Assembly: GCF_012863495.1 (NCBI RefSeq)
Contig: NZ_JAAVJL010000001.1
Location: forward strand, 930,001 to 994,000
Direction: 5' to 3'
DNA length: 64,000 nucleotides
DNA from: Pseudanabaena yagii GIHE-NHR1
GTDB lineage: Bacteria > Cyanobacteriota > Cyanobacteriia > Pseudanabaenales > Pseudanabaenaceae
Every line of letters begins with the position of its first letter. Within the stretch, counting starts at the first letter, position 1. Below the pieces are notes generated by a model. It worked only from the letters and a program-made list of their open reading frames with translations. It was not told where the DNA came from and made no database searches. Of the stretch, positions 19,084 to 63,137 are shown one piece after another. Both the position numbers and the translations under genes were made by a program.

Positions 19084-19128
19084 AGGTGGGTAGGATCTCA
19101 ATATAATTTTGTCATCATAGCCGAATTA

Positions 19129-19161
19129 AAAAAGAAGAGACGCTATGCGTCTCTTCTTTTT
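19129..19161. terminator. Hairpin, 15-bp perfect stem, TAT loop, after tRNA-Gly
   Basis: Arms 19129-19143 and 19147-19161, core GACGC-TAT-GCGTC with A5/T5 ends. It lies 9 bp past the 3' end of the leftward tRNA and can terminate it. Confidence 0.75.
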
Positions 19162-19170
19162 GTTGGATAA

Positions 19171-19241
19171 GCGGGTGATGGGATTCGAACCCACGACATT
19201 CTCCTTGGCAAGGAGATGCTCTACCACTGAGCCACACCCGC
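19171..19241 (-). tRNA. tRNA-Gly (anticodon GCC)
   Basis: 71 nt on the minus strand. The acceptor stem pairs GCGGGTG with CACCCGC; D-arm GCTCAGTGGTAGAGC, anticodon loop CTTGCCAA (GCC) on a CTCCT/AGGAG stem, T-arm GTGGGTTCGAATCCCAT. CCA is not encoded. Bases 19198-19241, the 5' part through the anticodon region, belong to a 126-bp repeat shared with 26782-26907, so this half and its promoter were supplied by the integrated element. Confidence 0.96.
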
Positions 19242-19323
19242 ATTTGGTGTTGTTTTTGTGCGCTTTTGCGTTTTGCGCTTTATTAATATGCCAAACATTG
19301 CAACTAATGTCAACTACTTTTTT
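19198..19323. repeat. 126-bp direct repeat, left att copy
   Basis: Identical, by my reading, to 26782-26907. It holds tRNA-Gly nucleotides 1-44 plus 82 bp upstream, including the tRNA promoter. Marks the left junction of the integrated element and completes the working tRNA gene. Confidence 0.95.
19282..19313 (-). promoter_or_regulatory. Promoter of tRNA-Gly inside the att repeat
   Basis: On the minus strand TTGACA (19313-19308) is followed by TATTAAT (19288-19282) at 19-nt spacing, or by CATATT at 17 nt, about 40 bp upstream of the tRNA. The same promoter is in the right-hand repeat, ahead of a tRNA fragment. Confidence 0.6.
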
Positions 19324-19478
19324 GAAAGCTGTTCTAAAAGCCTTATATAACAAGGTTTTCTAGGTTTTTAAAAAATCATAGAGGACATAGACTTAGTTTA
19401 TTGATATCAGGCATTATTCACATTGCTTTACACGCTTACGAAATTTTCTAAACCCAAAACCAAACCAAAAACTAACTA

Positions 19479-19500
19479 TTGGTACGGGATTGGTACGAAT
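19479..19500 (+). repeat. Tandem 11-bp repeat, left probable integrase arm site
   Basis: TTGGTACGGGA followed by TTGGTACGAAT. Its last bases include the start codon of the integrase gene (ATG at 19499). The same doublet occurs at the right end at 26708-26729 in the same orientation. Confidence 0.7.
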
Positions 19501-20644
19501 GAAAACTCCAAAAGGCACTATAGCTATAGAAAACAATGATAATCGCATACGGTTAAGATGGTCTTGTGAGTCAAAAAGATATTGCTTAGCTTTAGGATTG
19601 CCACACACAAGCGTCAACATGAAAGTAGCTGAGCAAAAGGCTAGACAGATCGAGCTAGATATTTTGTCTGGCAACTTTGACCCCACTCTAAACAAATATA
19701 GGATCAAGCAAGTAGCTGTCATTGCAAGTCCTGAAGTTGTAAAACCAAGTCAAGAACTCTTACTTCCTATCTGGGATAAATGGGTTGAGAGCTTGTGTTT
19801 ACCAACTAGAACGCTTTGTTCTCACTACGCTAGAATTAGGCGCTACATTGAAAAAGCAGATCCTTTGGCTACTGATGCTTCTTGGTATGAAGCGGTTGAG
19901 AGTTTATCCCCTAGTATCTGGAACAGTTCTTTGATCTATTTGGTATCTTGTCTCAATTGGGCAATCTCTGAAAAAATCATATCTGACAACCCTTTTTCAA
20001 AGTTGAAACGTAGAAAAGTATTAAAGAATCAGGTTAAACCTTTTAATCATGAGGAGGTAAGGGCAATAGTTAACGCTTTTCGCAATAACCTTTATTGTCC
20101 AAAGTCTTCAGCGTACAAGCATAGTTTTTATGCTGATTACATTGAGTTTTTATTTTTGACTGGTGTTAGACCTTCAGAAGCTATTGGGCTTCAGCGTCAA
20201 CATGTAGACTTTACTCGTAATGAGATTGTCATTAGTTCAGTCTTAGCTAGAGGAGATCAAGGACAGACAGCTAGTAAACATCGTGTCAGAAAAGAAACAA
20301 AAACAGGATCTATCCGTTTTCTGACAATGACAGCTAGGTTAACTGAAATGCTTGCGATTAGATGTCGCAATCTTAATCCTGAGGATTTAGTTTTTACTTC
20401 TCCCAATGGCAATGCAATTGATGACAAGAACTTTACAACGAGACAGTGGAAAGTCGTTTTAGCAGGGCTAGGGATCGAATATCGTAAGCCCTATACAACT
20501 AGACACACACTCGCATCAATGGCTTTAGAAGCTAATATGCCTATTACTTCTGTAGCTTATCTTCTGGGGCATTCAGACACAACAATGATTATGCAGACGT
20601 ATGGTCACGTTATAAATAGACCGTCTTTACCTGACTTTAGTTAA
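19499..20644 (+). CDS. Tyrosine recombinase (site-specific integrase)
   Basis: 381 residues, phage-type integrase expected to insert and excise the element at tRNA-Gly. The C-terminal catalytic domain has the Arg in FLTGVRPSEAIGLQ, a Lys in KTGSIRFLTM, the R-H pair in YTTRHTLASMALE, the His in LLGHSDTTM and the Tyr nucleophile in IMQTYGHVI. The N-terminal ~170 residues are the arm and core-binding parts. Start taken at ATG 19499; a TTG nine bases upstream is possible. The start codon is embedded in the tandem TTGGTACG repeat, so binding of integrase there could repress its own expression. A hairpin follows the gene. Confidence 0.93.
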   Translation: MKTPKGTIAIENNDNRIRLRWSCESKRYCLALGLPHTSVNMKVAEQKARQIELDILSGNFDPTLNKYRIKQVAVIASPEVVKPSQELLLPIWDKWVESLCLPTRTLCSHYARIRRYIEKADPLATDASWYEAVESLSPSIWNSSLIYLVSCLNWAISEKIISDNPFSKLKRRKVLKNQVKPFNHEEVRAIVNAFRNNLYCPKSSAYKHSFYADYIEFLFLTGVRPSEAIGLQRQHVDFTRNEIVISSVLARGDQGQTASKHRVRKETKTGSIRFLTMTARLTEMLAIRCRNLNPEDLVFTSPNGNAIDDKNFTTRQWKVVLAGLGIEYRKPYTTRHTLASMALEANMPITSVAYLLGHSDTTMIMQTYGHVINRPSLPDFS

Positions 20645-20651
20645 ACATTGA

Positions 20652-20690
20652 TAGCAAGGCTCACTAGGTTTAATTCTGGTGAGTCTTTTA
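20652..20690 (+). terminator. Terminator after the integrase gene
   Basis: Stem AAGGCTCAC pairs with GTGAGTCTT (one G-T pair) around a ~13-nt loop, followed by a T-rich stretch, starting just past the integrase stop codon. Confidence 0.6.
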
Positions 20691-20967
20691 TGTTATCGAT
20701 CGCAAAGAAATTTACCGATCGCACTAAACAAACAGCATATAAAATCAATGATCGGTTCTCCCCCTATCATGGTCGGTTCTCACACATTGATAGTAAAGAT
20801 TAGGATTGCTATTGTTTACTCACTGAAAGGCAGCAAAGTGAAGCCCTAAGAGAAGATAGAGAAAACGCTTCTCATTATCTATAAGACAGGATAGATAGAC
20901 CTGTCACCTAAGTTGTAGGCAACGCGCTACATGGCTTACTCTAAAGTTGATTAAGCATTTTAGGGAT

Positions 20968-21003
20968 TTTTTAAACAAACAAATATTTTTAAACAAACAA
21001 ATA
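20968..21003. repeat. Perfect 18-bp tandem repeat, iteron-like
   Basis: Two adjacent copies of TTTTTAAACAAACAAATA. It lies upstream of the helicase-like gene of the integrated element. Confidence 0.85.
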
Positions 21004-21274
21004 TCTGTCTGCTCACCAGACACTTGACCATAGAAGAAAAAGTATGGAACTGATGTCACTTTGTTCTCTTTCTATGTAGATCAAGTTTTAGCAAATACCA
21101 ATAAAGCAGCTATGAAATAGGGCTGTATGGATATTTGTATCAACAAGTTTCATTTGATTAGTAAATAAGCTTTCAAGTTTTTTACCGATCAACTGAATAT
21201 ATCCACAGAACATCAATTTTTTACAAATGATGTTCAGCTTTGCACTTCCTTAATGTTTTTAACAATCAAAAACT

Positions 21275-23308
21275 ATGGCACAAAACTACATTGATAATGT
21301 TGATACTGAATTTTTATTCTATGGACACAAGTATGAATCTTTCATCATGTGTGTAGATGCAGCTACTGACTTTCTCTCTACAAAAAGAGATCCAAACCAT
21401 TACAGTCAAGATCTAACACGCTATGACAAAAGTTGTGTGGAATCTGGTAAGTCCTATATAAATAATGTAGAAGATAACGGAAATCACACAAAACCTGAAT
21501 TAAAGCAAATTGATATAGGTCAACTTAGTAACCATATTCAGATCCTAGATGAACTGATTACAGGTAAATGGCTTCCTTACCATATCTATCGAGGTCTAGC
21601 TACTAATCTGGTATTGATTCATGGTGGTGTATCTATCTACAAGAAGTCACTAGCTACAATGTTAGAACTCTACAAAGATACAGTTGAGTTTCAACAGGCT
21701 TTACAAGACAACCCAAACTTTATATACAGGTTAAAGGTATTGCCTACAGTGATTAATCACTATGGAAAGCATTATGGTTATATACCTATCGATCTACAAT
21801 ATTTTTCACCACATTCTAATGACTGGACTTACATAAATCTACTGACACCATTGAGTCAGGTTGTAAGAGTAGAGCCATATCAAGGTAAACCTGTAGATGA
21901 AGTAAGACAAGAGTTTATAAACAAGTTCAATGAAGTAACTACAACACCAGATACTAATATCCATGTGTTCAGGGTTGCTACCGCAATAGGCAAGACGGAA
22001 CTATGCACTTCTCTAGAAAACGTACTTCTAGCATTTCCAGATCATGCTCTAAAAGATGAAGTGTCAACCAGAATGAAAGTAGATCATAAAGTGACACCTG
22101 ACACTAAGGACTTACCTACAGAGATTAAAAAGAAGCTAGATATTCTTTACCGTATAGGTGCATACTCAGCAGCTAATAGATTTCTAGGTGTATCAGCCAC
22201 AAACACTACAGTTAAACGCTACAACGTTGATATGTCAGCTTGCTATAACTCTAATGACACTGTGCTTACTACGCATAATAAGGCATTGCACTATAAGGAA
22301 TGGCAACACACAACGATTATTTTTGATGAAGATCCTTTTAAAACCATTTTGTCCAATGGCAAGACTACCCTAACAGAGCTTAGACAACTTAGAAATAAGA
22401 TGGTTGATGCAACTGTTAAGGATAAGCTTACACATTTGATTAATGAGATTGGGCAAACCGATCTTAATAGTCATACACCTGTAGATTTGTCGCTGTTTGA
22501 GGACTTTGAATTTATCCAAAAAGAAGTAGTTGATAATTGCGATAACTACAGTACCAACGTTTTACAGTTCTTTCAATCTAGTTGTTACTTGATTGACAAG
22601 GTTGAAAACAACATCATTCATTTTGGTAACAGGCATAAATTACCTACAGACAAGAAGGTTATTATTCTTTCGGCGACAGTAGATGAAGCTATTTATCGTC
22701 GTCTCTGTGGTAATCGTTTACGGTTCTACAATTTTAGCGATGTTCAGCCTACTGGGGTGATTTTGCAAAACGCAACATATTCATTTAGTAGTTCATCACT
22801 TACAGAACATCTTAAAGATATTGATGATATTTCAGCGCTAATTCCCACATCTTCATTGCCTACAATCACTCTTGCCAAGCACAAAAAAAGGCTTGGAGAG
22901 CTAGAGGTGAATATAGTTGATGATATGCACTTTGGAAAAGTGTCTGGATATGATGAGCTAAAAGGTCAAGACATTAATGTATTGGGAACTTTCTTTATAA
23001 ACCCTATCGCGATCTTTCTGTATGCCAAGCTACTTGATATGTCTATTGACAGTTATGAGTTTGAGAATCAGATTGTCATTCACAATGGGTTTAGGTTTCG
23101 CTTTAGCACTTATAACAATCAGGATTTAAGGAGTATCCACTTTTACATTGCTCAGACTGAACTTAGACAGGCTATAGGTAGATCTAGAGTAAACACTGAA
23201 CGATGCAAGGTGTATGTCTATTCCAATTTTCCTTTGCCTGAAGCTTGTGTTACGGCTGATGAGAAGGCGTTAGCTTTGGACAGATTGCGACGTGAGACAG
23301 ATAAATAG
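21275..23308 (+). CDS. SF2 helicase-like protein of the integrated element
   Basis: 677 residues. Motifs in helicase order: Walker A-like VATAIGKTEL (about 234-243, Lys240), Walker B IIFDEDP (348-354, a DExx box variant), motif III-like ILSATVDEA, and motif VI-like QAIGRSRVNTE near the C-terminus. The first ~200 residues have no motif I know and might be a DNA-binding, primase or adaptor domain. Within an element that has an integrase and no other replication gene, this is the best candidate for the replication or remodelling protein, but a defence helicase acting with the neighbouring nuclease is also possible. It converges on the nuclease gene, separated by 77 bp. Confidence 0.7.
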   Translation: MAQNYIDNVDTEFLFYGHKYESFIMCVDAATDFLSTKRDPNHYSQDLTRYDKSCVESGKSYINNVEDNGNHTKPELKQIDIGQLSNHIQILDELITGKWLPYHIYRGLATNLVLIHGGVSIYKKSLATMLELYKDTVEFQQALQDNPNFIYRLKVLPTVINHYGKHYGYIPIDLQYFSPHSNDWTYINLLTPLSQVVRVEPYQGKPVDEVRQEFINKFNEVTTTPDTNIHVFRVATAIGKTELCTSLENVLLAFPDHALKDEVSTRMKVDHKVTPDTKDLPTEIKKKLDILYRIGAYSAANRFLGVSATNTTVKRYNVDMSACYNSNDTVLTTHNKALHYKEWQHTTIIFDEDPFKTILSNGKTTLTELRQLRNKMVDATVKDKLTHLINEIGQTDLNSHTPVDLSLFEDFEFIQKEVVDNCDNYSTNVLQFFQSSCYLIDKVENNIIHFGNRHKLPTDKKVIILSATVDEAIYRRLCGNRLRFYNFSDVQPTGVILQNATYSFSSSSLTEHLKDIDDISALIPTSSLPTITLAKHKKRLGELEVNIVDDMHFGKVSGYDELKGQDINVLGTFFINPIAIFLYAKLLDMSIDSYEFENQIVIHNGFRFRFSTYNNQDLRSIHFYIAQTELRQAIGRSRVNTERCKVYVYSNFPLPEACVTADEKALALDRLRRETDK

Positions 23309-23327
23309 ATAGAGCCATCGTAGTCAA

Positions 23328-23379
23328 CTCAAAGCCATATATAGTAATGAGTTGACTATTTTCTCTTCTATGGTCTATG
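23328..23379. repeat. ~50-bp imperfect direct repeat flanking the nuclease gene, left copy
   Basis: Pattern TCAAAG-x-AGTAATGAGTT-x-TTCTCTTCTATGGTCTAT, recurring at 24328-24377 in the same orientation about 1,000 bp away with roughly four bases in five matching. Also sits in terminator position between the convergent helicase and nuclease genes (AGTCAACTC ... GAGTTGACT inverted repeat, then T-rich). Confidence 0.7.
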
Positions 23380-23385
23380 TAAGTG

Positions 23386-24171
23386 CTAAATAATGTTCCA
23401 TTCGCACTCCAGCCTAAAAATTACTTTTTTATAAAAATCAAACTGTCTAGAAGATGGTGTACGAATATGAGTAATACCCCCAGATTCTATAATTTCTGTT
23501 GCTTCAACTTGGGAAAGCTTGCTTATTTCTTCTTTCTCTTCTTTTGTTAATAGCTCATTTAGCTCTGCGTATGTTCGAGATTGAAAGAATGAATGAATAT
23601 CATCATCATTATTGCATTTATCAATCTCATTCTGCCAAAAAGATATTTTTTTGATTCTGTTTGACAAGGTAACAGACCCTGCATCCTGTGGTTTTTTAAA
23701 GATTTCTACCCAGATTGGGTAATGTTTTTTGAGCAAGTCATAATTACTCGGCTCTGCCAAATAACTACATAAATCATCCCAAAAAATTACATGAACAGGA
23801 AATTTGTTTTCCGATGTTCTTTCCTGAGTTAATTTCATAACAAAATTTTGTATTTCTGTATCTCTGGAGGTCGTAGTTGCAATGAGATATTCACTAATTG
23901 GATGGGTAAACTTTTTTGTCTTTTCAACCTCTGAAGTAATTGTTGTAGGCTTAAAACTTTTATCTTCAAAGCGTTTACATTGAACTGCGATATTTTTATC
24001 TGAATTACTTTGTCTACCGTAGATATCAACACCATTTTGAGCTTGTCCATGTCTTCCATATCTTTGTGCATATGGATCTTGCCAACGACGAGTATAAATT
24101 TCCCATACAATATCCTCGAATTCATCCCATGATTTAGGCTTGGGTAAGTCACTTGTTGAAGGTGTAGGCAT
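23386..24171 (-). CDS. PD-(D/E)XK-type nuclease-like protein
   Basis: 261 residues from the ATG at 24171 (MPTPSTSDLP). The N-terminal half has a restriction-endonuclease-like core: WDEFEDIVWEIY helix, then GRHGQAQNGVDIYG (catalytic Asp) and IAVQCKRF (the QxK of the motif), as in Mrr-like nucleases and the nuclease domains of several NTPase defence proteins. The remaining ~140 residues show no known domain, so the usual sensor partner would have to be a separate gene. It lies alone between two copies of a ~50-bp repeat. DNA cleavage is inferred from the motif only; the target is unknown. Confidence 0.75.
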   Translation of the reverse strand: MPTPSTSDLPKPKSWDEFEDIVWEIYTRRWQDPYAQRYGRHGQAQNGVDIYGRQSNSDKNIAVQCKRFEDKSFKPTTITSEVEKTKKFTHPISEYLIATTTSRDTEIQNFVMKLTQERTSENKFPVHVIFWDDLCSYLAEPSNYDLLKKHYPIWVEIFKKPQDAGSVTLSNRIKKISFWQNEIDKCNNDDDIHSFFQSRTYAELNELLTKEEKEEISKLSQVEATEIIESGGITHIRTPSSRQFDFYKKVIFRLECEWNII

Positions 24172-24541
24172 AATTAATTGGAAGTGTTGTAGATATAATT
24201 TCTGTAAGGTAAATATCACATAAATAGTCGGGTAAAGCAACCAATAAGCGTGATAGCCAACTTGTTACTAGTTTTGTTATCTGGTACTTCTAAAGCTAGG
24301 TGATATCTAGATTTTTTATTAAGCACTTCAAAGCTTTATAAAGTAATGGGTTAACTTGTTTCTCTTCTATGGTCTATTCAAATATTAACAGAAATAGCTA
24401 TTTTTAGCCCTTGTAAGCTCTTGAATATTTCAAATGTAAGAACATAAGCAAACAGTCGTGCAAGTCTTAAAATGCAAACAAATACAGAAAGAGAAGGATT
24501 AGTTTGTTGTATGAAATCCCCCTTCTCTTCTATGCAGCTTT
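24172..24541. other. Non-coding 370 bp upstream of the nuclease gene
   Basis: AT-rich spacer with the second ~50-bp repeat (24328-24377) and, near its right end, a GAGAAGG ... CCTTCTC inverted repeat followed by TCTATG (24491-24534) that can end the small membrane protein transcript. No ORF seen. Confidence 0.45.
24328..24377. repeat. ~50-bp imperfect direct repeat flanking the nuclease gene, right copy
   Basis: Second copy of the repeat at 23328-23379. It is not at the 3' end of any gene I can see, so a simple terminator role does not explain it. Confidence 0.65.
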
Positions 24542-24727
24542 TTATGTGTTTGAGTAAAGAATAGCAGCTACAATAAAACAGAGAAGACCTTTGATCTGGG
24601 ATATATTAGCATTTTCAATAAGCTGCGGTACAACTAACCCAATTGACCAACCACCTACCACAAAAAAGAAAATACCAAAAGCAGCAAATACACAAGCACC
24701 ATAGAAAGAAAGTTGTTGTTTTGACAT
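24542..24727 (-). CDS. Small protein with two membrane segments
   Basis: 61 residues from the ATG at 24727 (MSKQQLSFYG); a GTG 12 bases upstream is possible. Two hydrophobic stretches (ACVFAAFGIFFFVVGGW and GLLCFIVAAILY) joined by a short polar loop. I do not recognise a family. In the element it lies downstream of the SHOCT-type gene on the same strand and upstream of the nuclease gene, after a 125-bp gap. A holin-like or membrane effector role can be imagined but nothing in the sequence shows it. Confidence 0.55.
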   Translation of the reverse strand: MSKQQLSFYGACVFAAFGIFFFVVGGWSIGLVVPQLIENANISQIKGLLCFIVAAILYSNT

Positions 24728-24852
24728 TGTAAAATTCACGTTAAATTCATGTCAACACTACTACAAACTGTTAGTAAAAGCTACACAGAATAAATATTTT
24801 CTTCTATGTTTAGGCAAAAATGCTGATTGTGATTAAATCTACATAGAAAAAA

Positions 24853-25278
24853 CTAAAGTCTACTGAGTAGCTCTTTCTTTTTCTGATTAAACTCTTCTTG
24901 AGTTAATAAACCATCTTTGAGTAGTTCACCAAGTTGTCTAATTTGGTTGGGGATATCAGTATTATTTGGTGCTTCAAGATAAACCGTTTGACTTTCATTC
25001 AAAGATTCTTGTTCAACACCTATCAACCATTTAAAAGCATCACTCATAGCTGAATAAGATCCCCAAGCTTTTCTAATGTCATTAGGATCAAGTAATCTAC
25101 AATGACCAGTGAGTTTATTCTTTTGCAACCGCCAACCTTGATAAGAAGTTAGAGTATCCCAAAAAACTTGACCACCCATAGTAGGCGATTCTATATTTGG
25201 CATAGAGCCTATATACTCGCAGAATTTACCAATTAGGTTAGGGTTTGCGACTAATGTAATAAGTCCTTTTTGTAGCAT
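24853..25278 (-). CDS. Protein with C-terminal SHOCT-type motif
   Basis: 141 residues from the ATG at 25278 (MLQKGLITLV). The N-terminal ~100 residues start with LQKGLITLVANPN and include QVFWDTLTSYQGWRLQKNKLTGHCRLLDP, which I cannot place. The last ~32 residues (IRQLGELLKDGLLTQEEF followed by NQKKKELL) match the SHOCT helix pair, a short oligomerisation module found at protein ends. It lies 58 bp downstream of the LRAT-like gene on the same strand and may be co-transcribed with it. Molecular role unknown. Confidence 0.65.
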   Translation of the reverse strand: MLQKGLITLVANPNLIGKFCEYIGSMPNIESPTMGGQVFWDTLTSYQGWRLQKNKLTGHCRLLDPNDIRKAWGSYSAMSDAFKWLIGVEQESLNESQTVYLEAPNNTDIPNQIRQLGELLKDGLLTQEEFNQKKKELLSRL

Positions 25279-25336
25279 CCTAGTTCTCAAATTCTATTTG
25301 TACTGTTTATTCCAAAATCCTCACATAGTCTCTTTT

Positions 25337-26170
25337 CTATGTGCTTTTCTTAGTTCGTAAGTTTTCAACTTGAGTTGACCTAGCCTCACCATAAACCATC
25401 TCTCTAGCCCAATGCTCACAGTTATAAAGCAACTTATTCCATAGCTTATCTTTAGCTGCAATGAACTTCTTTCTTGACTCATCTATACGCGCCTCTATTT
25501 GGCTGTCAGAAACAGATTCAGGACGCTCTTTAAATAGCCACTCAGCTTTGTAAGGAGAGAAATAGACATAACCTAACCCAACTTCTGCTACTCGTCCTTG
25601 AGGTCTAATAGTCTCAATTGTAAAGAAGTGCGCGATGCTATAGCCCTGATGAGTTGCCCTCACAATTCCGTAGTGTTCATAGGGTCTACCCTCCTCATCT
25701 TGAGATGGATAAATAACCAGATCATTGGGTCTGATTACATTACCGTTAAGATCACAAATATCAGGAACAGCACTTAGAAGAGAAACCAACTGTCCAAGCC
25801 TATCTAACTGAACATCCGTAACCTCTTGCAGTGCAAAAAACCACTTAGGATCGCAATTATCCGTATATAGCTTAATTTCCTTATACTTGTCCTTAACCCA
25901 AACACCATGATTTTGAAGCTTTTTAACAGCATCAAAATGTTGATTGACATCATTTCTTACAAAAGTTTGGTCAAACTCAATTTGTAATAATTCTGCAATC
26001 GCCTCACAGTTTTCTATTACCTTCTTATCTTTAGTATGTCTAGCAATCTGACTTAAAGCTTTCTTGATAGTGTCACCATCGTATAAGCGATCTTGAGTCT
26101 CAGCAAACAAGCGTAATACTCTAGATGGATTTGGATTCATCAACTTTGGGCTTTGCTTTTTTCTGGTCAT
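25337..26170 (-). CDS. LRAT-like cysteine protein of the integrated element
   Basis: 277 residues. The N-terminal ~130 are helical and unrecognised. The C-terminal part has the circularly permuted NlpC/P60 layout of LRAT-like proteins: a beta-rich NDLVIYP, then His166 in YEHYGIVRA, His181 in IAHFFTIE, and NCEHWAREMVYG with Cys251. In the LRAT/H-Rev107 family the NCEHF-type Cys acts with histidines as acyltransferase or phospholipase; bacterial versions are thought to act on lipids or peptides. GAGG lies close before the ATG at 26170. As cargo of a mobile element, a membrane-lipid effector or a defence protein are both reasonable, and untested. Confidence 0.72.
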   Translation of the reverse strand: MTRKKQSPKLMNPNPSRVLRLFAETQDRLYDGDTIKKALSQIARHTKDKKVIENCEAIAELLQIEFDQTFVRNDVNQHFDAVKKLQNHGVWVKDKYKEIKLYTDNCDPKWFFALQEVTDVQLDRLGQLVSLLSAVPDICDLNGNVIRPNDLVIYPSQDEEGRPYEHYGIVRATHQGYSIAHFFTIETIRPQGRVAEVGLGYVYFSPYKAEWLFKERPESVSDSQIEARIDESRKKFIAAKDKLWNKLLYNCEHWAREMVYGEARSTQVENLRTKKST

Positions 26171-26258
26171 CTTCCTCTGTCATCTTTTTGATAACGTATT
26201 CACTCACAGCACCTGTAGCTTTTTTACTAGACTTCCTGACAGCATCATCGTTGACCAT
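26121..26258 (-). CDS. Possible 45-aa Lys-rich protein overlapping the LRAT-like gene
   Basis: ATG at 26258, MVNDDAVRKSSKKATGAV and later EDDQKKAKPKVDE, stop at 26121. It overlaps the first 50 bases of the LRAT-like gene in another frame. The composition is plausible for a small soluble protein and translation could be coupled, but there is no family match I know, and it could be chance. Confidence 0.3.
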   Translation of the reverse strand: MVNDDAVRKSSKKATGAVSEYVIKKMTEEDDQKKAKPKVDESKSI

Positions 26259-26781
26259 AATTTACCTAAACTTTTTGTATAACTTTACCTAGATAAACAA
26301 TACAACCAACTTTAAAAGAACGCTACGGTGTTACGAAAAATAAAAAATTAAACTGATTATTATCTTAATTTGCATCTTAGTAACCTATCTTAACCTTGCT
26401 CAGTATAAGTACTCATAGAATAAATACGATCTACTCTTGTTTTACAAGGACATACAGCTTGAATGAGTATTTATACTTATTATTAGAAGCATCACTTTAT
26501 TTCTATGGTTGCCTTTTAGTCTTGTCGCGAGTCTAGCTTTCTCACTATAGGATCAAGATAGTCAATATCTTGAAATCTTCGCATAAATATTTTCTTATAG
26601 ATTTACGGGATATTATAAAAAATACCTATATAAATAGCCCTTAAAAAACCCCTTACTAGCAATCATTTCTCTTTACTTAACGCTTGAAATGCTTTACTAT
26701 TAAGGAGTTGGTACGGAATTGGTACGGAAAATATTTGTAATTTGTAAAACCTTTGTGAATAGAGCGTTACAGATTGGATGA
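26259..26781. other. Non-coding right end of the integrated element
   Basis: AT-rich, about 520 bp, no ORF of note. It should hold the promoter of the leftward cargo genes. The tandem TTGGTACGGAA doublet at 26708-26729 is the only clear structure, 53 bp from the right att repeat. Confidence 0.45.
26708..26729 (+). repeat. Tandem 11-bp repeat, right probable integrase arm site
   Basis: Two perfect copies of TTGGTACGGAA, matching the doublet at the integrase start codon. In the excised circle the two doublets would lie on either side of the att core, as arm sites of lambda-type integrases do. Confidence 0.7.
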
Positions 26782-26907
26782 ATTCTCCTTGGCAAGGAGA
26801 TGCTCTACCACTGAGCCACACCCGCATTTGGTGTTGTTTTTGTGCGCTTTTGCGTTTTGCGCTTTATTAATATGCCAAACATTGCAACTAATGTCAACTA
26901 CTTTTTT
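26782..26907. repeat. 126-bp direct repeat, right att copy with tRNA-Gly fragment
   Basis: Identical to 19198-19323. Contains tRNA-Gly nucleotides 1-44 and the upstream promoter but lacks the 3' part, so it is the displaced original 5' half of the host tRNA gene and cannot make a tRNA. Confidence 0.95.
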
Positions 26908-26948
26908 AAACAAACTAAAACTCCCTACGGGAGTTTTAGTTTGTTTAA
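26906..26948. terminator. Hairpin, 20-bp perfect stem, TAC loop
   Basis: Arms 26906-26925 and 26929-26948, core ACTCCC-TAC-GGGAGT. It overlaps the stop codon of the leftward flavin reductase gene and begins at the edge of the right att repeat. Confidence 0.75.
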
Positions 26949-27433
26949 TATTTGAAGCCATTTTTGCGTGTGTGGACAGCAGGTTCACCTTCACGGAGGC
27001 GATCGCCTGCATTAATTGTTGCCAAGATGATCGTATGGTCACCCGCATCAAGGCTACTAGTTACCGTCGCATCAAGATAAGCGATCGCCTCGGTGAGATA
27101 AAGCTGACCACTAGGAGCAGTTGCCGTATCAACACCATCAAAAGGATCGACATCGGGTGCGAAGCCTTTCGCAAAATGTCCAATGATTTTTCCCTGTCCC
27201 TTTTCAGCAACATTAATCACCACGGGACTACCTACAGTTAAGAATGACTCAATTGGTCTACCTTTACCAACCACAAAAGTTACAGATGGCGGATTAAAGC
27301 CTGCTTGTTGTACCCAAGAAGCGAGCATCGTACCCGTTGCACCATTTTGTTGAGAAGTAACGATAAACAAGCCACTGGGAATTGTCCCGATCGCAGCTCC
27401 AAGTTGTTCATTTTGGGAAATAGTTTCGGTCAT
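26945..27433 (-). CDS. Flavin reductase-domain protein
   Basis: 162 residues, a stand-alone FMN-binding split-barrel of the flavin reductase family. Landmarks are the N-terminal IGTIPSGLFIVTSQQNG and the MLASWVQQAGFNPPSVTFVV block that forms the FMN site, then DHTIILATI near the end. In cyanobacteria the same domain is the C-terminal part of flavodiiron proteins (Flv1-4), and this protein resembles that domain alone. It would reduce flavin with NAD(P)H or bind FMN for electron transfer; no diiron or flavodoxin domain is present. ATG at 27433. Confidence 0.88.
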   Translation of the reverse strand: MTETISQNEQLGAAIGTIPSGLFIVTSQQNGATGTMLASWVQQAGFNPPSVTFVVGKGRPIESFLTVGSPVVINVAEKGQGKIIGHFAKGFAPDVDPFDGVDTATAPSGQLYLTEAIAYLDATVTSSLDAGDHTIILATINAGDRLREGEPAVHTRKNGFKY

Positions 27434-41695: not shown

Positions 41696-42481
41696 ATGAA
41701 AATATTAGAACAAACACCTAGGAGACTGGTGTTCTACAGTAGACCTATCGGACTGTGGCTATTTACAGCCATATTCCCTACGATTGGTATTTTGATTGGT
41801 ATTTTTTTCATAGACATCAACTCTTTTAGCTGCAAACGCCAAGGCTCAAGCAATGATTTGTGCCAAAAAACAACTATTAGTACGCTAGGAACACGCACAA
41901 CTCAAATTCCACTTAACGATTTGCTAGGTGCTGAGGTCAGACAAAAATATGACAAGCAAGAAATATCCCACCGTCTTGAAATTAATACCAAGCAGGGTAT
42001 CGTTCCATTAGGTCAGGGATGGGGAGGCGGAAGTAGTTCTTTTAGCGAAAGTGCAATGGCTGCCCAAATCAATAATTTTTTGCGAAATAGTCAACAGAAA
42101 TCAGTCTCAATCACTCTATATCCAAGTGCAATTTTACTAATTTGGTTTTTCCTATGGGTCCCAATTACTTTATTGATATTCTTTACTGTTGCTCAGGTTA
42201 GGATTTGTACATTTGACAAAAATCTTCAAAAATTGAAGGTGGAAGTAAAAGGTTTATTGGGTTACAAATCGTCTGAATATCCTCTAGAGCAAATTTCAGA
42301 TGTTATCATTTTAGAATCAGCATCAAGCAATAGTATCGCAGTAAATCCAGTCTATGTGGTTCTCGATTCAGGACAAAAGATATCTGTTTACTTGACATCA
42401 TTATCTAATAGTAGCGATTGGTTCCAAAAAGCTCAAGAAAGCACCAACTTAATCAAGTCTTTCTTGGGACTTCCCATTTAA
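41696..42481 (+). CDS. Membrane protein, unknown
   Basis: 261 residues. Two hydrophobic regions (LWLFTAIFPTIGILIGIFF at about 20-38 and AILLIWFFLWVPITLLIFF at about 145-163) enclose a soluble segment with two cysteines and a Gly/Ser-rich patch (GQGWGGGSSSFSES). The C-terminal ~90 residues look like a PH-type beta sandwich. I do not recognise the family. It lies 39 bp before the AAA ATPase gene on the same strand and has no HIP1 site, as do the ATPase gene and most of the next one, so these could be one acquired block. A membrane part of a three-gene defence locus is a possibility only. Confidence 0.55.
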   Translation: MKILEQTPRRLVFYSRPIGLWLFTAIFPTIGILIGIFFIDINSFSCKRQGSSNDLCQKTTISTLGTRTTQIPLNDLLGAEVRQKYDKQEISHRLEINTKQGIVPLGQGWGGGSSSFSESAMAAQINNFLRNSQQKSVSITLYPSAILLIWFFLWVPITLLIFFTVAQVRICTFDKNLQKLKVEVKGLLGYKSSEYPLEQISDVIILESASSNSIAVNPVYVVLDSGQKISVYLTSLSNSSDWFQKAQESTNLIKSFLGLPI

Positions 42482-42520: not shown

Positions 42521-43654
42521 ATGTTATCCAAACTTAAAGTCCAACATTATAAAAGCCTCTTTGACACTGAAATAGATCTAGAACCACTAACTGTCTTTAT
42601 TGGGCCAAATGGCTCTGGCAAGTCCAATATTTGTGAATCTCTAGTTGTATTATCTGATTTCCTTAATAGACTGGCAGGGAGTATCAATAACGCATACAAT
42701 GCCAAGGATTTTTTTTCCCAATCACTTCAAGCCGTGAGTAAAACCCAAGTAAATATTGAGTCTAAATTTTGGCATGGTAATTTAGATCATCTTTGTTTCA
42801 TAGTCAGTGCTCTTAAAAAAAATGAAACCGCTTTATCCAAACTGACTGATCTTTTCGTGAGTTTTGCTTACCCACAGCAAAATATTTTAATAAAAATCCT
42901 TGAAAACGAGATTGCCAAGGAAACTTCAGAGGCTTCACATACGCTTTCTTTAAGTGCATTTCTGGTTGCCAACAACTATCAATTTTCTCCAATTGCAGAA
43001 GCTTTGCGTAAGATTTGTATTTACGATTTTGCTCCACTAAATTTGTCTAACCAAGTTTCATCCAATGGCAGTATGGCAAGAACAGGAGAGGGGATAGCTT
43101 ATGCTTTAGTTGATATCTTACTTAGTAATCGTAAAGGTTTTGATGAATTAGAAGAGAGGCTAAAATTTCTTGTTCCAAACATACAAAAAATCTCATTACC
43201 TCGTAGTAGTAATCAGAGTTTCTCATTACAATTGATAGATAAATATTCAGAACATCATATTCCTGCTTCTGATATATCTGATGGCACATTGAGGATATTA
43301 GCTTTTCTGACAGCGCTATATCAAGAAAACACCCCTAGTATTATTTGCTTTGAAGAAATCGAAAATGGCGTGCATCCTTGGCTACTGCACAAAATGATGG
43401 AGCTATTAAAACTTGTTTCCACGGAAGGAATCACTGGTAAACCAGTTCAAGTATTGATTACAACCCATTCTCCCACGCTACTAAATTATGTCGAACCACA
43501 TCAAGTCCGCGCTGTAGAACTTGATAACGAAGGCAAAACTCAAGTTCATAACTTGCCCACAGATTCTGTCCGTTTTCAAAAAGCACTAGAAGCCTATGAT
43601 GGTTCTCTTGGTGAACTTTGGTTTACCAACCAGTTTGGAGGTAATCCTGCATGA
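42521..43654 (+). CDS. AAA family ATPase (AAA_21/OLD-like)
   Basis: 377 residues, ABC-type ATPase fold of the RecF/OLD group. Walker A is GPNGSGKSN (28-36, Lys34), the signature-like motif ISDGTLRILAFLTAL, Walker B IICFEEIENGVHP and the switch His in TTHSPTLLNYV. The helical insertion between Walker A and the signature lies where OLD-family proteins carry theirs. Proteins of this type power several anti-phage systems with a nuclease partner. Its last 4 bases overlap the start of the next gene, which encodes a TOPRIM-like protein, so the two should be co-translated. Confidence 0.85.
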   Translation: MLSKLKVQHYKSLFDTEIDLEPLTVFIGPNGSGKSNICESLVVLSDFLNRLAGSINNAYNAKDFFSQSLQAVSKTQVNIESKFWHGNLDHLCFIVSALKKNETALSKLTDLFVSFAYPQQNILIKILENEIAKETSEASHTLSLSAFLVANNYQFSPIAEALRKICIYDFAPLNLSNQVSSNGSMARTGEGIAYALVDILLSNRKGFDELEERLKFLVPNIQKISLPRSSNQSFSLQLIDKYSEHHIPASDISDGTLRILAFLTALYQENTPSIICFEEIENGVHPWLLHKMMELLKLVSTEGITGKPVQVLITTHSPTLLNYVEPHQVRAVELDNEGKTQVHNLPTDSVRFQKALEAYDGSLGELWFTNQFGGNPA

Positions 43655-44403
43655 ATCGTGCGATTCGGATTGGGTTAATTGCTGAAGGAGAAGCAGAACT
43701 CGGTGCAAGTATTCCATATATCAACCCAGAAGATGGTGGAAAAATTATCGAAAGATGTAGAGAAGGTGCTTTGCATACTCTGATTAGACGAGAGCTTCAA
43801 GCCATTGGTTTAGATTGTGACTTTGTGCAAAGACATCCTACAAATCATGAAAGTGGAATTTTTACGAGGCGGACTGGGCACTCAATTTTACAACCCAAAT
43901 ATCTTGCCCAAGTGGTCATCGCATGGAAACCTGAAGAGATCGATATGATTTTGATAGTGGTTGATGCCGACGACGTTTTATCCAAAAGACAGCATGATTT
44001 AGAAATTGCTTTAGCTAAAATTCGTAGTAATCATTTAGATGAGAATGAACAGGAAATTAGCGATCGCAGTGCGGGTGGATTAGCAATTAGAAATTTTGAG
44101 ACATGGTTACTTGCCGATACTCAGACTATTTCACAGGTTTTAGGCGTAGATATTGCCAAGTTAGAAAACTTAGAGGATTTAGAAAATACAAAAGAGATTT
44201 TAGAAGATGCGATCGCAAATTCTACATACCTAAATGAGAAAACAAATAATCAACGACCATTAAAAATCCGTTGGGATCTTGCCACTCACATAAATTTAGA
44301 CATCATTAAAAACCATTGTCCTCATGGATATGCAGCCTTTACTCAAAACCTCATAGCAGCAGCAATATGCACCACAAAAAATCAGTTCATTGTTAAATCG
44401 TAG
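43651..44403 (+). CDS. DUF4276-type TOPRIM-like protein
   Basis: 250 residues. GLIAEGEAELGA near the N-terminus offers the TOPRIM Glu, and ILIVVDADDV (D105-x-D107-D108) the metal-binding Asp pair, so it may be a nuclease. NFETWLLADTQTI and a late HCPHGYAAFTQNL fit DUF4276 as I recall it. The gene starts in an ATGA overlap with the AAA ATPase gene, a sign of a stoichiometric pair. ATPase plus TOPRIM pairs such as PARIS (AriA/AriB) and OLD systems are anti-phage; this pair is of similar design, with a different TOPRIM family. Role inferred. Confidence 0.75.
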   Translation: MNRAIRIGLIAEGEAELGASIPYINPEDGGKIIERCREGALHTLIRRELQAIGLDCDFVQRHPTNHESGIFTRRTGHSILQPKYLAQVVIAWKPEEIDMILIVVDADDVLSKRQHDLEIALAKIRSNHLDENEQEISDRSAGGLAIRNFETWLLADTQTISQVLGVDIAKLENLEDLENTKEILEDAIANSTYLNEKTNNQRPLKIRWDLATHINLDIIKNHCPHGYAAFTQNLIAAAICTTKNQFIVKS

Positions 44404-60424: not shown

Positions 60425-61480
60425 ATGCAAAAGAACACTCAGTTAGAATTTAGTTTCTCATTAAACAAATCTCTAATTCTTTCTTTTCATATTCTATTGG
60501 AGTTAGCATTAGTTAACTTTATTAGTCTATATCTTCATGGTTCACCACAAGCCTACGCACAAACCCTTATACAGCCACCAATCATTTTATCTCAAGCAAC
60601 AAGTGATGACTTAATCAAGCAAGGCGAAGCATTATATAATGAAAGTCGCTATCAAGAGGCATTAGTCTTATTTGAAAAAGCTACTCAGTTAAATCCTAAT
60701 AATGCTAGTTACTGGAATTGGAAAGGTATTACTTTAGCTAACTTAAAGCTTTATAAAGAAGCAATACAAGCTTATGATAAAGCTAATAAGCTTCAACCTA
60801 GTAGCGTTTATTTGTACAACCGAGGACTATCACTAGAAAGTCTAAAACTATACCAAGATGCTTTGTCATCTTACGATAAGGCTATAAGCCTTAAAAACGA
60901 TTATGTAAATGCGTGGATAGAAAGAGGAGATGTGCTTCAAAAATTAGAACGCTATCAAGATGCCATCGAATCTTTTGAAAAAGCAATTCAATTAGCTGGC
61001 GGTAGTGCTAGAGCTTGGTATCTAAAGGGTTTTGTTTTAGACAAAAAAATTGAGAAATATGGTGAAGCCCTCACTGCTTACGAGGAAGCTTTGCGAATTG
61101 ACCCTGATTACAACTCTTATATATGGCTTAGAAAAGCATATATTCATTACAAGAACAAACAATTTTTGGAAGCAATCATGTCTTTAGATAATTCTATAAG
61201 AATAAGTCAAAATTCTTGTGATTGGCATTTGAGAGGAACAGCTTTAAATGAATTAGAAAGATATGAGGAAGCAATATCTTCATTTAATCAAGCAATAAAA
61301 CTTAATGCTTATTGTGCAGGAGATAACAGAAAACTAGAAGATTCATATTATGGGAAAGGCACAGCCTATGCTAGGCTCAACCGATATATAGATGCAAGAG
61401 ATAGCTTTAGAAAAGTTCTTGAGATTAACCCTTCATATAAGAATGCGTTAACTGCATTAAGAGCACTACCTAAGCCATAA
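60425..61480 (+). CDS. Secreted TPR repeat protein
   Basis: 351 residues. A hydrophobic stretch at about 15-37 (ILSFHILLELALVNFISLYL) acts as signal or anchor, followed by PQAYAQT. From about 60 on, eight or so TPR units of 34 residues: YNESRYQEALVLFEKATQLN, LKLYKEAIQAYDKANKLQP, LKLYQDALSSYDKAISLK, LERYQDAIESFEKAIQLA and so on, with one longer unit. It is a protein-binding scaffold outside the cytoplasm. The gene is AT-rich and lacks HIP1 sites, unlike most neighbours. It converges on the CHAT protein gene, 10 bp away. Confidence 0.85.
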   Translation: MQKNTQLEFSFSLNKSLILSFHILLELALVNFISLYLHGSPQAYAQTLIQPPIILSQATSDDLIKQGEALYNESRYQEALVLFEKATQLNPNNASYWNWKGITLANLKLYKEAIQAYDKANKLQPSSVYLYNRGLSLESLKLYQDALSSYDKAISLKNDYVNAWIERGDVLQKLERYQDAIESFEKAIQLAGGSARAWYLKGFVLDKKIEKYGEALTAYEEALRIDPDYNSYIWLRKAYIHYKNKQFLEAIMSLDNSIRISQNSCDWHLRGTALNELERYEEAISSFNQAIKLNAYCAGDNRKLEDSYYGKGTAYARLNRYIDARDSFRKVLEINPSYKNALTALRALPKP

Positions 61481-61490
61481 TCTTCAAGTA

Positions 61491-63137
61491 TTACTTTCCT
61501 ATATTGATTGGGGGGAGATCGATTTTAGTGTTGTTTGGGAGAGTAGGTGTAGGAGATGAGGATGGTAGAGTTTTTATTGGATTTGATCCAGAGTTAGATT
61601 TTTGGAAAATGATATCAGCCTTTTCCTGCCAAAATATAGTTGATACATTTCGGGCTATATTTTTAGCATCATCTAGCCTACCTTCATCTATAGCTCTATT
61701 TGCCTCATTTATTAGTTTCTCGTTGCTTTTCCATTCTATTTGCCATTTCGATGATAATTCTTGAGATTTATTTCTCATGTCATCATTATTTGTAGCAATT
61801 AATTGCAGCAAATTAAGTGATTCATTTAATTTACCTTCTTCCTGATATTGTTTAGTGGCATTATCTAAAATTGTTAGCGACCATTTATCAATCAGTTTCT
61901 TCGACTCTGGATAAACAACGCTATTAGAACTAATTGTAGTGATAAGTAAGAAAGCATCAGTTAACTTGCCATTTTTTACCATTTCTTGAGATTGTATTAT
62001 TTTTGATTTATCTTCCTGAAGCATTCCAGCTTGACATTCTTTCTTAATTAATCGTGCTATCTGATCATAAGATGAGTTAACAAAAATAGAATTATTTTGT
62101 TCAACACACTCTTTATATTTATTTGCTAGTTTTAAGTTTTCAATTTTTTCTATTTCTGCAAACAAAAATCTATCATTCTGATATTGTTGTGCATATATAT
62201 AAATTAAAACAAAAGGAATTGGAAGAATAATTATTAAACCAATAATAAGTTTAAATTTATTCGATTGAGACAAATAAGTTCTAATTTTTTTTATTAAAGT
62301 TAGCCTTGATGAATTGAGTAATTTTATATCTCTTATTCCCTTCAAAATATTTTTTTTCATGCCTAAAGATTGTAGATTTTCATTTTCCACAACTTTGATT
62401 GTTTCTCCTTTCTTTCTTAAAATGAGAATTTTAGTTGCTTCTTCGTTGGCAAGATCGAATTCGATTGCTACCTTACCCCATTTAAAAGCCTCTTCATAAC
62501 TCTTCCCTGACCCGATCGCATCATAAAACCCCTGTGAAAACTTAATCGCCACATTATCCTCAACCACATCACGCATCCCAATCGTAAACAGAATATTTGC
62601 CGCGATCGCATCACCCTGCACATCCGAATAACAAGCATTCAACACCACACATTCCAAATGCTCCTCACAAAGCTGTAACAAATTTGCTAATGGTTTTGCA
62701 GGTACAAACTTAATTTCATCATTGTTATTAGTCGAACGCGATCGCACCTCTCCCCCTTCCGAACGATAGATCGCACTTGCCGACTCATCACTCACAAACA
62801 GCAAACCCTGCTCCCCCGAACCGTGACCGCTAAAATGCAAAACATGGGGTTCTAAATCCAACAAAGCCCGACGTAATTCTGAAGGAGTAGCCGCCAGCCG
62901 ATATTCCACCTCAAAATTATCCCGTTTGCGCGATCGCCTTAACGCCTCTTGGATGGTTTTTACCTCATGATCTAGCTTCAAAGGTGATGAGCCTAACGGA
63001 TTAGCCGCTACTACCAAAATCCTAACGCGATCGCCTGATTGTGCTAACCGTTCCGCAATACCGACATTCAGGTTCTGCACATTCACAGTACCGCCCTGAA
63101 CATTAATACCAATTTTTTCAGCCAAGGGATCGGTCAT
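61491..63137 (-). CDS. CHAT-domain (caspase-like) protein with membrane helix
   Basis: 548 residues. After GINVQGGTVNVQNLNVG comes a CHAT domain at about 35-235: catalytic His105 in LHFSGHGSGEQG and Cys169 in VVLNACYSD, both as in the separase/caspase-like family. A membrane helix at about 296-317 (LIIGLIIILPIPFVLIYIYA) is followed by ~230 helical residues with no known motif. CHAT proteases act in bacterial programmed cell death and anti-phage defence. The 5' half of the gene is richer in GC and has HIP1 sites, the 3' half (roughly 61491-62450) is AT-rich and has none, suggesting a composite gene. Confidence 0.85.
   Translation of the reverse strand: MTDPLAEKIGINVQGGTVNVQNLNVGIAERLAQSGDRVRILVVAANPLGSSPLKLDHEVKTIQEALRRSRKRDNFEVEYRLAATPSELRRALLDLEPHVLHFSGHGSGEQGLLFVSDESASAIYRSEGGEVRSRSTNNNDEIKFVPAKPLANLLQLCEEHLECVVLNACYSDVQGDAIAANILFTIGMRDVVEDNVAIKFSQGFYDAIGSGKSYEEAFKWGKVAIEFDLANEEATKILILRKKGETIKVVENENLQSLGMKKNILKGIRDIKLLNSSRLTLIKKIRTYLSQSNKFKLIIGLIIILPIPFVLIYIYAQQYQNDRFLFAEIEKIENLKLANKYKECVEQNNSIFVNSSYDQIARLIKKECQAGMLQEDKSKIIQSQEMVKNGKLTDAFLLITTISSNSVVYPESKKLIDKWSLTILDNATKQYQEEGKLNESLNLLQLIATNNDDMRNKSQELSSKWQIEWKSNEKLINEANRAIDEGRLDDAKNIARNVSTIFWQEKADIIFQKSNSGSNPIKTLPSSSPTPTLPNNTKIDLPPINIGK

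What the first reader, a model, noticed from the sequence alone, without database searches (positions are those of the whole stretch)
42521..44403. AAA ATPase and TOPRIM-like DUF4276 gene pair as a candidate anti-phage system
The two genes overlap by four bases. The ATPase has full ABC/OLD-type motifs and the partner has EGE...DADD as a TOPRIM nuclease core. The design matches PARIS and OLD-type defence but with another TOPRIM family. The upstream membrane-protein gene (39 bp away) also lacks HIP1 sites and may belong to it.
Basis: partly seen in the sequence, partly recalled or inferred. Interest (0 to 1): 0.6.

Follow-up and report, generated by a model that had tools for sequence, protein, structure and literature searches.

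The report
ATPase–TOPRIM pair resembling known defence candidate
A cyanobacterium carries a two-gene unit, an ATPase and a probable metal-dependent nuclease, that looks like a distant cousin of an already catalogued candidate anti-phage system (HEC-01), so it is an unstudied relative rather than a new kind of thing.

Summary
The pair is real: ORFs 42521-43654 and 43651-44403 overlap by 4 bp, and 13 of 13 homologous cyanobacterial loci keep that overlap. The ATPase is of OLD/PtuA/Rad50 type. The partner is a divergent DUF4276 protein, below Pfam's cut-off, in which the five carboxylates of OLD/RNase M5-type TOPRIM nucleases (E12, E16, D105, D107, E150) are invariant in 13 aligned sequences. AlphaFold gave no usable model (pLDDT 44), so the fold is inferred. 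PADLOC-DB (2023) already lists such pairs as HEC-01 (ATPase E 7e-48, partner E 9e-9). The PARIS rule fails (no DUF4435). The upstream membrane gene does not belong: it is absent beside 13 of 13 homologous pairs and occurs without the pair in a relative. Close relatives sit singly, mostly among metabolic genes; no defence-gene enrichment was shown. ATPase residues 45-165 are hypervariable between near-invariant motifs, as expected of a sensor. Best reading: a stand-alone, split-OLD, PARIS-like module in which the ATPase senses phage and the nuclease aborts infection; the defence role is untested. New, divergent member of a known kind.

The parts
42521..43654 (+). ABC ATPase (AAA_21/AAA_15, OLD/PtuA-like), 377 aa; presumed sensor and holder of the nuclease
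   Evidence: Pfam AAA_21 E 4.1e-31, AAA_15 4e-24; PADLOC HEC-01A E 7.1e-48; Foldseek of the model: retron/Septu PtuA and Rad50 (model pLDDT 58)
42602..42625 (+). Walker A GPNGSGKS, Lys34
   Evidence: sequence; K34 invariant in 13 aligned sequences
42653..43015 (+). hypervariable segment, ATPase residues 45-165, candidate sensor region
   Evidence: mean 41% aa identity to 12 homologues against 90% (1-44) and 93% (241-377); dN/dS 0.30-1.21 against 0-0.07 in residues 1-44 and 241-377 in nine chosen pairs
43277..43294 (+). ABC signature SDGTLR (residues 253-258)
   Evidence: invariant in 13 aligned sequences
43340..43357 (+). Walker B-like IICFEE (residues 274-279)
   Evidence: E278 and E279 invariant in 13 aligned sequences
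43460..43474 (+). H-loop TTHSP (residues 314-318)
   Evidence: invariant in 13 aligned sequences
43651..43654 (+). 4-bp ATGA overlap of ATPase stop and partner start
   Evidence: same overlap in 13 of 13 homologous loci
43651..44403 (+). divergent DUF4276 / HEC-01B-like protein, 250 aa; probable TOPRIM nuclease (effector)
   Evidence: DUF4276 28.0 bits, E 3e-6, below cut-off; HEC-01B E 8.9e-9; 13 of 13 aligned members hit HEC-01B models at E <= 0.001; hhalign 93.6% to a canonical DUF4276 alignment over 199 columns
43684..43698 (+). TOPRIM motif 1 EGEAE (E12, E16)
   Evidence: both Glu invariant in 13 aligned sequences
43963..43974 (+). TOPRIM DxD motif DADD (D105, D107, D108)
   Evidence: the three Asp invariant in 13 aligned sequences
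44098..44100 (+). E150, fifth carboxylate (equivalent of E508 of B. pseudomallei OLD by order and spacing, inference)
   Evidence: invariant in 13 aligned sequences; aligned with Glu in 25 of 25 canonical DUF4276
41696..42481 (+). membrane-protein ORF; judged NOT part of the system
   Evidence: no homologue (tblastn E <= 1e-4) in any of the 13 homologous loci L005-L017; 69% identical homologue after cobS without the pair in G401 (L073)

Best explanation
The pair is a compact, stand-alone two-gene immune module of the split-OLD type, a divergent relative of PADLOC candidate HEC-01. Shown by sequence: an OLD/PtuA-type ABC ATPase whose stop overlaps the start of a DUF4276-family protein carrying the five-carboxylate TOPRIM motif. 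Inferred: the ATPase forms an oligomer that holds the nuclease inactive and uses its hypervariable segment (residues 45-165) to sense a phage product. Sensing releases or activates the nuclease, which cleaves host or phage nucleic acid with two metal ions and aborts the infection, as AriA and AriB do in PARIS. The membrane gene upstream plays no part.
For: ATPase families and PtuA/Rad50-like fold. Strict pairing: exact 4-bp overlap in 13 of 13 close loci; an ABC ATPase immediately upstream in 32 of 33 DUF4276 loci examined, the 33rd having an ATPase fragment about 1.1 kb upstream. Metal ligands E12, E16, D105, D107, E150 invariant, in the order and with spacing like E400, E404, D455, D457, E508 of OLD (PMC6755086, passages read); the pattern arises in 118 of 20000 column permutations, with spacing ranges that I set after seeing the sequence. 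HEC-01 matches in both genes. Patchy distribution: 11 of 386 phylum genomes, 5 of the 11 broken or fragmentary, 4 of 26 in the genus. Several unrelated chromosomal sites. Hypervariable segment between near-invariant motifs. PARIS mechanism as model (PMC12409363, PMC11455837, passages read).
Against: No experiment. The TOPRIM fold was not obtained (pLDDT 44; no significant Foldseek hit). This subfamily alone gives no profile match to OLD TOPRIM (0.25%). Of 10 flanking proteins scanned none is a clear defence gene, except perhaps a Uma2 'putative restriction endonuclease'. Flank and cobS-site scans did not show a significant excess of defence genes. The hypervariable segment may be merely relaxed: a related family shows a weaker form of the same pattern, and the window-L005 comparison gives dN/dS 0.07 there, with saturated dS. 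No copy in the phage, plasmid or viral-contig collections.
Confidence: 0.6

Rival explanations
1. A housekeeping or DNA-repair ATPase-nuclease, like the archaeal OLD protein Cran1, which acts in the cell cycle rather than in defence.
For: Flanks are mostly metabolic or housekeeping genes. OLD-family proteins with a cell-cycle role exist (PMC12796447, abstract read).
Against: Present in only 4 of 26 genus genomes and 11 of 386 phylum genomes, 5 of the 11 broken or fragmentary. Different chromosomal sites in different lineages.
Confidence: 0.15
2. A toxin-antitoxin pair maintained as a selfish addiction module rather than for immunity.
For: Small, solitary, overlapping two-gene cassette, patchy, at several sites; one copy has a full-length ATPase and a partner lacking its middle (G255, L026).
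Against: No plasmid or phage copy found. For PARIS, deletion of either gene was not toxic, which its authors took to exclude a toxin-antitoxin system (PMC9122126, passage read).
Confidence: 0.15
3. The module includes the upstream membrane protein and is a three-gene membrane-associated system.
For: 39-bp gap, same strand, no HIP1 in that gene.
Against: Absent from 13 of 13 homologous loci. Three other Pseudanabaena loci have the pair directly after cobS without it (L005, L006, L017); G401 has the membrane gene after cobS without the pair.
Confidence: 0.03
4. The partner is not an active nuclease: a degenerate TOPRIM or another fold acting as a binding protein.
For: Low-confidence model. In 18 of 25 canonical cyanobacterial DUF4276 sequences the second Asp of DxD is Tyr. 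10 of 13 members also match a CARF4--CARF_PDDEXK model weakly (best E 3.2e-5).
Against: In this subfamily all five carboxylates, full DxD included, are invariant in 13 aligned sequences.
Confidence: 0.12

Closest known systems
HEC-01 (Hma-embedded candidate 01, PADLOC-DB v2.0.0)
   Same: Same two parts: ATPase best hit HEC-01A E 7.1e-48, partner best hit HEC-01B E 8.9e-9; 13 of 13 aligned partners hit HEC-01B models. Another pair in the same genome (L001) is plainly HEC-01 (2.4e-139 and 7.7e-77).
PARIS (AriA + AriB)
   Same: Separate ABC ATPase and TOPRIM-type genes in one unit; the ATPase passes the AAA_15 and AAA_21 thresholds of the published rule (rule in PMC9122126, passage read).
   Different: Partner has no DUF4435 match up to E = 1 and no AriB match.
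OLD family nucleases (class 1 OLD, Gabija GajA)
   Same: ABC ATPase plus TOPRIM with E-x3-E, DxD, E metal ligands; class 1 OLD also stand alone, away from defence genes (PMC10568477, passage read).
   Different: Two separate genes; no GajB-type helicase among the neighbours scanned.
Septu / retron PtuA-PtuB
   Same: ATPase fold: best Foldseek hits are PtuA, TM-score by query 0.41-0.51.
   Different: No HNH PtuB match for the partner in Pfam, PADLOC or NCBIfam. A reverse transcriptase was not looked for by a dedicated search.

Membership tests
HEC-01 (PADLOC) | HEC-01A-type AAA ATPase gene | tested here: met
   E 7.1e-48, residues 2-372 of 377
HEC-01 (PADLOC) | adjacent HEC-01B / DUF4276 gene | tested here: inconclusive
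   HEC-01B E 8.9e-9, 33.6 bits; 13 of 13 aligned members match; but DUF4276 is below the Pfam cut-off (28.0 against 30.2) and PADLOC's own thresholds were not available
HEC-01 (PADLOC) | found embedded within Hma systems (how the candidate got its name) | tested here: inconclusive
   10 flanking proteins of close relatives are mostly metabolic; a PADLOC scan of 117 of 168 flanking ORFs shows no Hma among the 25 families listed of 137; Hma itself was not searched for
PARIS | ATPase with AAA_15 >= 32 or AAA_21 >= 27 bits | tested here: met
   86.4 and 109.6 bits; rule from PMC9122126
PARIS | partner with DUF4435 >= 27 bits (AriB) | tested here: not met
   no DUF4435 match up to E = 1; AriB not among the 15 PADLOC families matched by the partner up to E = 1
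TOPRIM superfamily, OLD/M5 type | invariant Glu after strand 1, DxD, further acidic ligands (E-x3-E and a Glu about 50 aa after DxD) | tested here: met
   E12, E16, D105, D107, E150 invariant in 13 aligned sequences; ligands as in PMC6755086. Sequence-level test only
TOPRIM superfamily, OLD/M5 type | TOPRIM fold | tested here: inconclusive
   AlphaFold pLDDT 44, order of strands and helices compatible; Foldseek nothing significant; canonical DUF4276 against OLD 27% over 21 columns, eight column-shuffled controls at most 0.22%; this subfamily alone 0.25%
Gabija / class 2 OLD | adjacent UvrD/Rep-like helicase GajB | tested here: not met
   neighbours scanned: cobS, membrane ORF and 115-aa ORF without match, M16 peptidase, TPR protein
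Anti-phage defence system | protects against phage | not testable with these tools
   needs plating assays

The most novel reading that the evidence does not exclude
A distinct cyanobacterial lineage of split-OLD immunity that stands alone among metabolic genes, keeps a complete five-carboxylate nuclease site, and carries an arms-race sensor segment (ATPase residues 45-165) that evolves about ten times faster at the protein level than the ABC motifs around it to follow changing cyanophage triggers, so that exchanging this segment would exchange phage specificity.
Probability: 0.3. Interest if true: 0.5.

Novelty: new member of a known kind. Interest (0 to 1): 0.33.

Why it matters
If right, a short natural two-gene unit from cyanobacteria would be an easy test of how HEC-01-type pairs work. 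I found no paper in the library that holds the word DUF4276 and no statement that HEC-01 itself was tested. The sharply bounded variable segment points to where a phage trigger may bind. DUF4276 genes are common in cyanobacteria (42 of 194 genomes), so a result would carry over to many loci. As a finding it extends a known class rather than opening a new one.

Tried and rejected
PDB sequence search with the partner: nothing by single sequence; by profile only two outer surface protein C chains at E 0.04-0.06, judged chance. A canonical DUF4276 protein: nine PDB matches at E 0.08-0.85, judged chance.

Distant relatives in viral contigs: none confirmed, two queries. Plasmids and phages: no match.

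Profile comparison with RloB: not significant (0.05%, where one RloB row, L142, was a wrong ORF; 18% for A1 after that row was dropped). With OLD TOPRIM, 3 sequences: not significant (0.04%). With 12 sequences: 27% for canonical DUF4276, 0.25% for this subfamily alone. Those 12 were the ones of 33 OLD loci that passed a script filter asking for an EG motif at the expected place; 21 were dropped. So the EG they share with DUF4276 is partly by selection; the acidic fifth residue (12 of 12) and the DxD (found by the pattern in 10 of 12) are not.

Membrane gene as third part: rejected. HIP1 argument: rejected. Exact ends of the inserted cassette: not resolved; the ureB-ureC gap varies from -7 to 1336 bp in the 10 of 30 loci without the pair where both genes were in view.

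Flank scan: 117 of 168 flanking ORFs of L005-L016 (some left out to keep the set small) matched 137 PADLOC families, 25 listed. The list includes RT-Protease_XI in 2 ORFs (5.9e-141), PD-T4-6 kinase models in 2, and mad2, mad3, mad6, mad8, AriA models in 2-4. No control was run for this scan, so it neither shows nor excludes enrichment.

cobS 3' side as a defence hotspot: the first three ORFs after cobS in 17 genus genomes without the pair (50 ORFs; the near-duplicate G391 left out) matched 104 families, 25 listed, some very strongly (DpdF, Cas10b, MTase_I, PsyrT). PDB searches of six of the 50 ORFs showed a Cas10/Cmr2-like protein (G399) and a type I methyltransferase (G346), and otherwise a TPR protein, RecQ, SbtA and pyruvate dehydrogenase E1. 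The DpdF and PsyrT hits are probably the RecQ (inference). A control of 51 ORFs from arbitrary coordinates of the same 17 genomes, some on the same short contigs, listed no Cas or R-M family but did list PDC-M38A, PDC-S03, AbiLi, HerA and MkoA (25 of 82 families shown). At least 2 of 17 against none seen in 17 is not significant; no enrichment is claimed.

Full report
WHAT IS THERE. Two ORFs on the + strand, 42521-43654 (377 aa) and 43651-44403 (250 aa), overlap by the four bases ATGA. The first has Walker A GPNGSGKS with Lys34, signature SDGTLR, Walker B-like IICFEE and TTHSP. The second has EGEAE near the start and DADD at 105-108. Two points do not: DUF4276 is hit at 28.0 bits, under the curated cut-off of 30.2, and the HIP1 argument fails. 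The partner gene has two HIP1 octamers, and stretches without HIP1 are common in this window (42% of 786-bp stretches).

THE PAIR IS A CONSERVED UNIT. One scan of public genome contigs gave 13 cyanobacterial loci, L005-L017. All 13 have the ATPase directly upstream with exactly the same 4-bp overlap (in L017 the partner is cut by the contig end). Against the 12 complete pairs, median dN/dS to the window is 0.16 for the partner and 0.14 for the ATPase, saturated comparisons dropped. Among DUF4276 genes at large 33 loci were examined: the 4 of this genome (one being the pair itself) and 29 of the best-scoring elsewhere, one per genome, not all matches. An ABC ATPase lies immediately upstream on the same strand in 32. 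In the 33rd (L092) a C-terminal ATPase fragment lies about 1.1 kb upstream, with opposite-strand ORFs between that look like an insertion sequence (my reading). Such genes are common: 42 of 194 phylum genomes have a DUF4276 match.

THE ATPASE. Pfam gives AAA_21 and AAA_15. PADLOC gives HEC-01A first (7.1e-48), with PDC-M07A, PDC-M25A, AriA, AbiLi, mad3 and GajA models behind it. A moderate AlphaFold model (pLDDT 58) matches retron and Septu PtuA and Rad50. The most striking feature is uneven conservation. Residues 1-44 and 241-377 are 90% and 93% identical on average to 12 homologues, residues 45-165 only 41%, residues 166-240 67%; median dN is about 0.60 in 45-165 and 0.05 in the two conserved ends. 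In nine chosen, not independent, pairwise comparisons dN/dS in 45-165 was 0.30-1.21, against 0-0.07 in residues 1-44 and 241-377 and 0.09-0.34 in 166-240 (one comparison had no change in 1-44). Against this, window-L005 gives 0.07 in 45-165 with saturated dS. A related ATPase group shows the same tendency more weakly (entropy 0.70-0.92 bits at residues 81-160 against 0.2-0.4 near the C-terminus). This suggests a sensor surface in conflict, but relaxed constraint is not excluded.

THE PARTNER. Evidence that it is a TOPRIM nuclease is by sequence. In B. pseudomallei OLD the metal ligands include E400, E404, D455, D457 and E508 (PMC6755086, passages read). Here E12, E16, D105, D107 and E150 keep the same order and a like spacing and are invariant in 13 aligned sequences. 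The pattern arises in 118 of 20000 permutations of the columns, with spacing ranges that I set after seeing the sequence. The first and the last Glu align with Glu in 25 of 25 canonical DUF4276 proteins, and the second with Glu or Asp in 22 of 25; in that alignment the DxD columns were not aligned reliably. By pattern, 18 of 25 canonical sequences have D-x-Y at this place, so this subfamily is the one with the full DxD. Twelve OLD TOPRIM sequences show EGxx[E/D]; the EG was part of how they were picked, the acidic fifth residue was not. Profile comparison links this subfamily to canonical DUF4276 (93.6%, 199 columns). It links canonical DUF4276 weakly to OLD TOPRIM (27% over 21 columns; eight shuffled controls at most 0.22%), and this subfamily alone not at all (0.25%). 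Weak Pfam matches to RloB and DUF3226 occur in 2 of 13 members each. AlphaFold failed (pLDDT 44), although its order of strands and helices is compatible with TOPRIM; Foldseek found nothing significant. The fold is likely but not shown.

DISTRIBUTION AND SITES. The partner is found in 11 of 386 phylum genomes, 5 of the 11 broken or fragmentary, and in 4 of 26 genus genomes. It follows cobS in the three other Pseudanabaena loci directly (L005, L006, L017) and in the window with the membrane gene between. Elsewhere it lies in the ureB-ureC gap, antisense to urease (L008, L013, L016; L011 beside ureC only), upstream of gpmI (L009, L010, L012, L015), beside an aldehyde dehydrogenase (L007) or a SpoIIE-type regulator (L014). 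In trees of both proteins each site shared by three or four rows forms one group (partner: ure 97/96, gpmI 98/98, cobS 100/99; ATPase: 100/100, 79/92, 100/100). I infer that the pair changes site rarely and is often lost or broken. Nothing was found in the phage, plasmid or viral collections.

THE MEMBRANE GENE. It has no homologue in any of the 13 homologous loci. A 69% identical homologue follows cobS in G401 without the pair. It is an independent occupant of the same site.

DEFENCE CONTEXT. Of 10 flanking proteins of close relatives scanned with Pfam, nine have a family: urease alpha and beta, an ABC-F-like ATPase, iPGM, aldehyde dehydrogenase, a zinc oxidoreductase, HlyD, a SpoIIE-type regulator, and a Uma2 protein that Pfam calls a putative restriction endonuclease. 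Uma2 was scanned in L009; L012 and L015 hold members of its BLAST cluster. A PADLOC scan of 117 of 168 flanking ORFs matched 137 families, 25 listed, among them RT-Protease_XI in 2 ORFs (5.9e-141) and kinase and MADS models; it had no control. After cobS, at least 2 of 17 genomes without the pair carry a clear defence gene (Cas10/Cmr2-like in G399, type I methyltransferase in G346). A control from other places of the same genomes listed no Cas or R-M family but did list AbiLi, HerA and PDC models. The difference is not significant and both lists were capped. The other three DUF4276 pairs of this genome lie near genes that read like an M16 peptidase, a ThyX and a TruB (my reading, not scanned).

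WHAT IT IS CLOSEST TO. HEC-01 of PADLOC-DB v2, where both genes find their best matches; another pair in this genome is plainly HEC-01. HEC means Hma-embedded candidate (PMC10855318 and PMC12988326, passages read). PMC12988326 says that several HECs including HEC-06 have shown antiviral activity. HEC-01 is reported as detected in a Desulfovibrio piger strain (PMC12724379, passage read). I found no statement that HEC-01 itself was tested (searches; most papers listed there were not opened). The founding paper (Payne and colleagues) is recalled, not read. It is not PARIS by the published rule (AAA_15 32, AAA_21 27, DUF4435 27 bits; PMC9122126, passages read): the partner has no DUF4435 match.

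MECHANISM. In PARIS, AriA forms a hexamer that sequesters AriB and releases it as a dimeric tRNase on sensing Ocr (PMC12409363 and PMC11455837, passages read). By analogy the ATPase here would hold the nuclease, sense a phage product with its variable segment, and release or activate the nuclease. Shown: pairing, motifs, selection, distribution. Inferred: oligomer, sensing, release, substrate, defence.

VERDICT. A real, conserved, divergent member of a catalogued candidate class. Interest is moderate to low; the variable segment and the complete metal site make it a convenient test case.

Noticed in passing
window 18925-26999: The longest HIP1-free stretch of the window (8 kb) includes tRNA-Gly (19170-19241) next to a phage-type integrase (19490-20641) and holds an Mrr_cat_2 restriction endonuclease match (23389-24240, 26.2 bits over a cut-off of 22): a likely integrated island.
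   Followed up: partly
window 61494-63137 and 60425-61477: A CHAT-domain (caspase-like protease) protein next to a TPR protein on the opposite strand, in an AT-rich stretch.
   Followed up: no
L008, L013, L016 (ureB-ureC gap); L108-L137: The gap between urease genes ureB and ureC runs from -7 to 1336 bp in the 10 of 30 loci without the pair where both genes were in view, and is 2121-2130 bp where the pair sits antisense inside it: an insertion-prone place between two operon genes.
   Followed up: partly
L059-L078, 3' of cobS: Judged by ORF sizes, what follows cobS differs in most of the Pseudanabaena genomes compared, while a CtpA homologue on the other side was seen in 18 of 20 stretches; one genome has a Cas10/Cmr2-like gene and one a type I methyltransferase there.
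   Followed up: partly
G000: L001, L002, L004: The same genome has three more DUF4276 genes, each with an ABC ATPase directly upstream, very different in sequence from the pair studied.
   Followed up: partly
L095, L096, L100: A DUF4276 subgroup with EE instead of EG in motif 1 and DED in motif 2, also with an ABC ATPase upstream.
   Followed up: no
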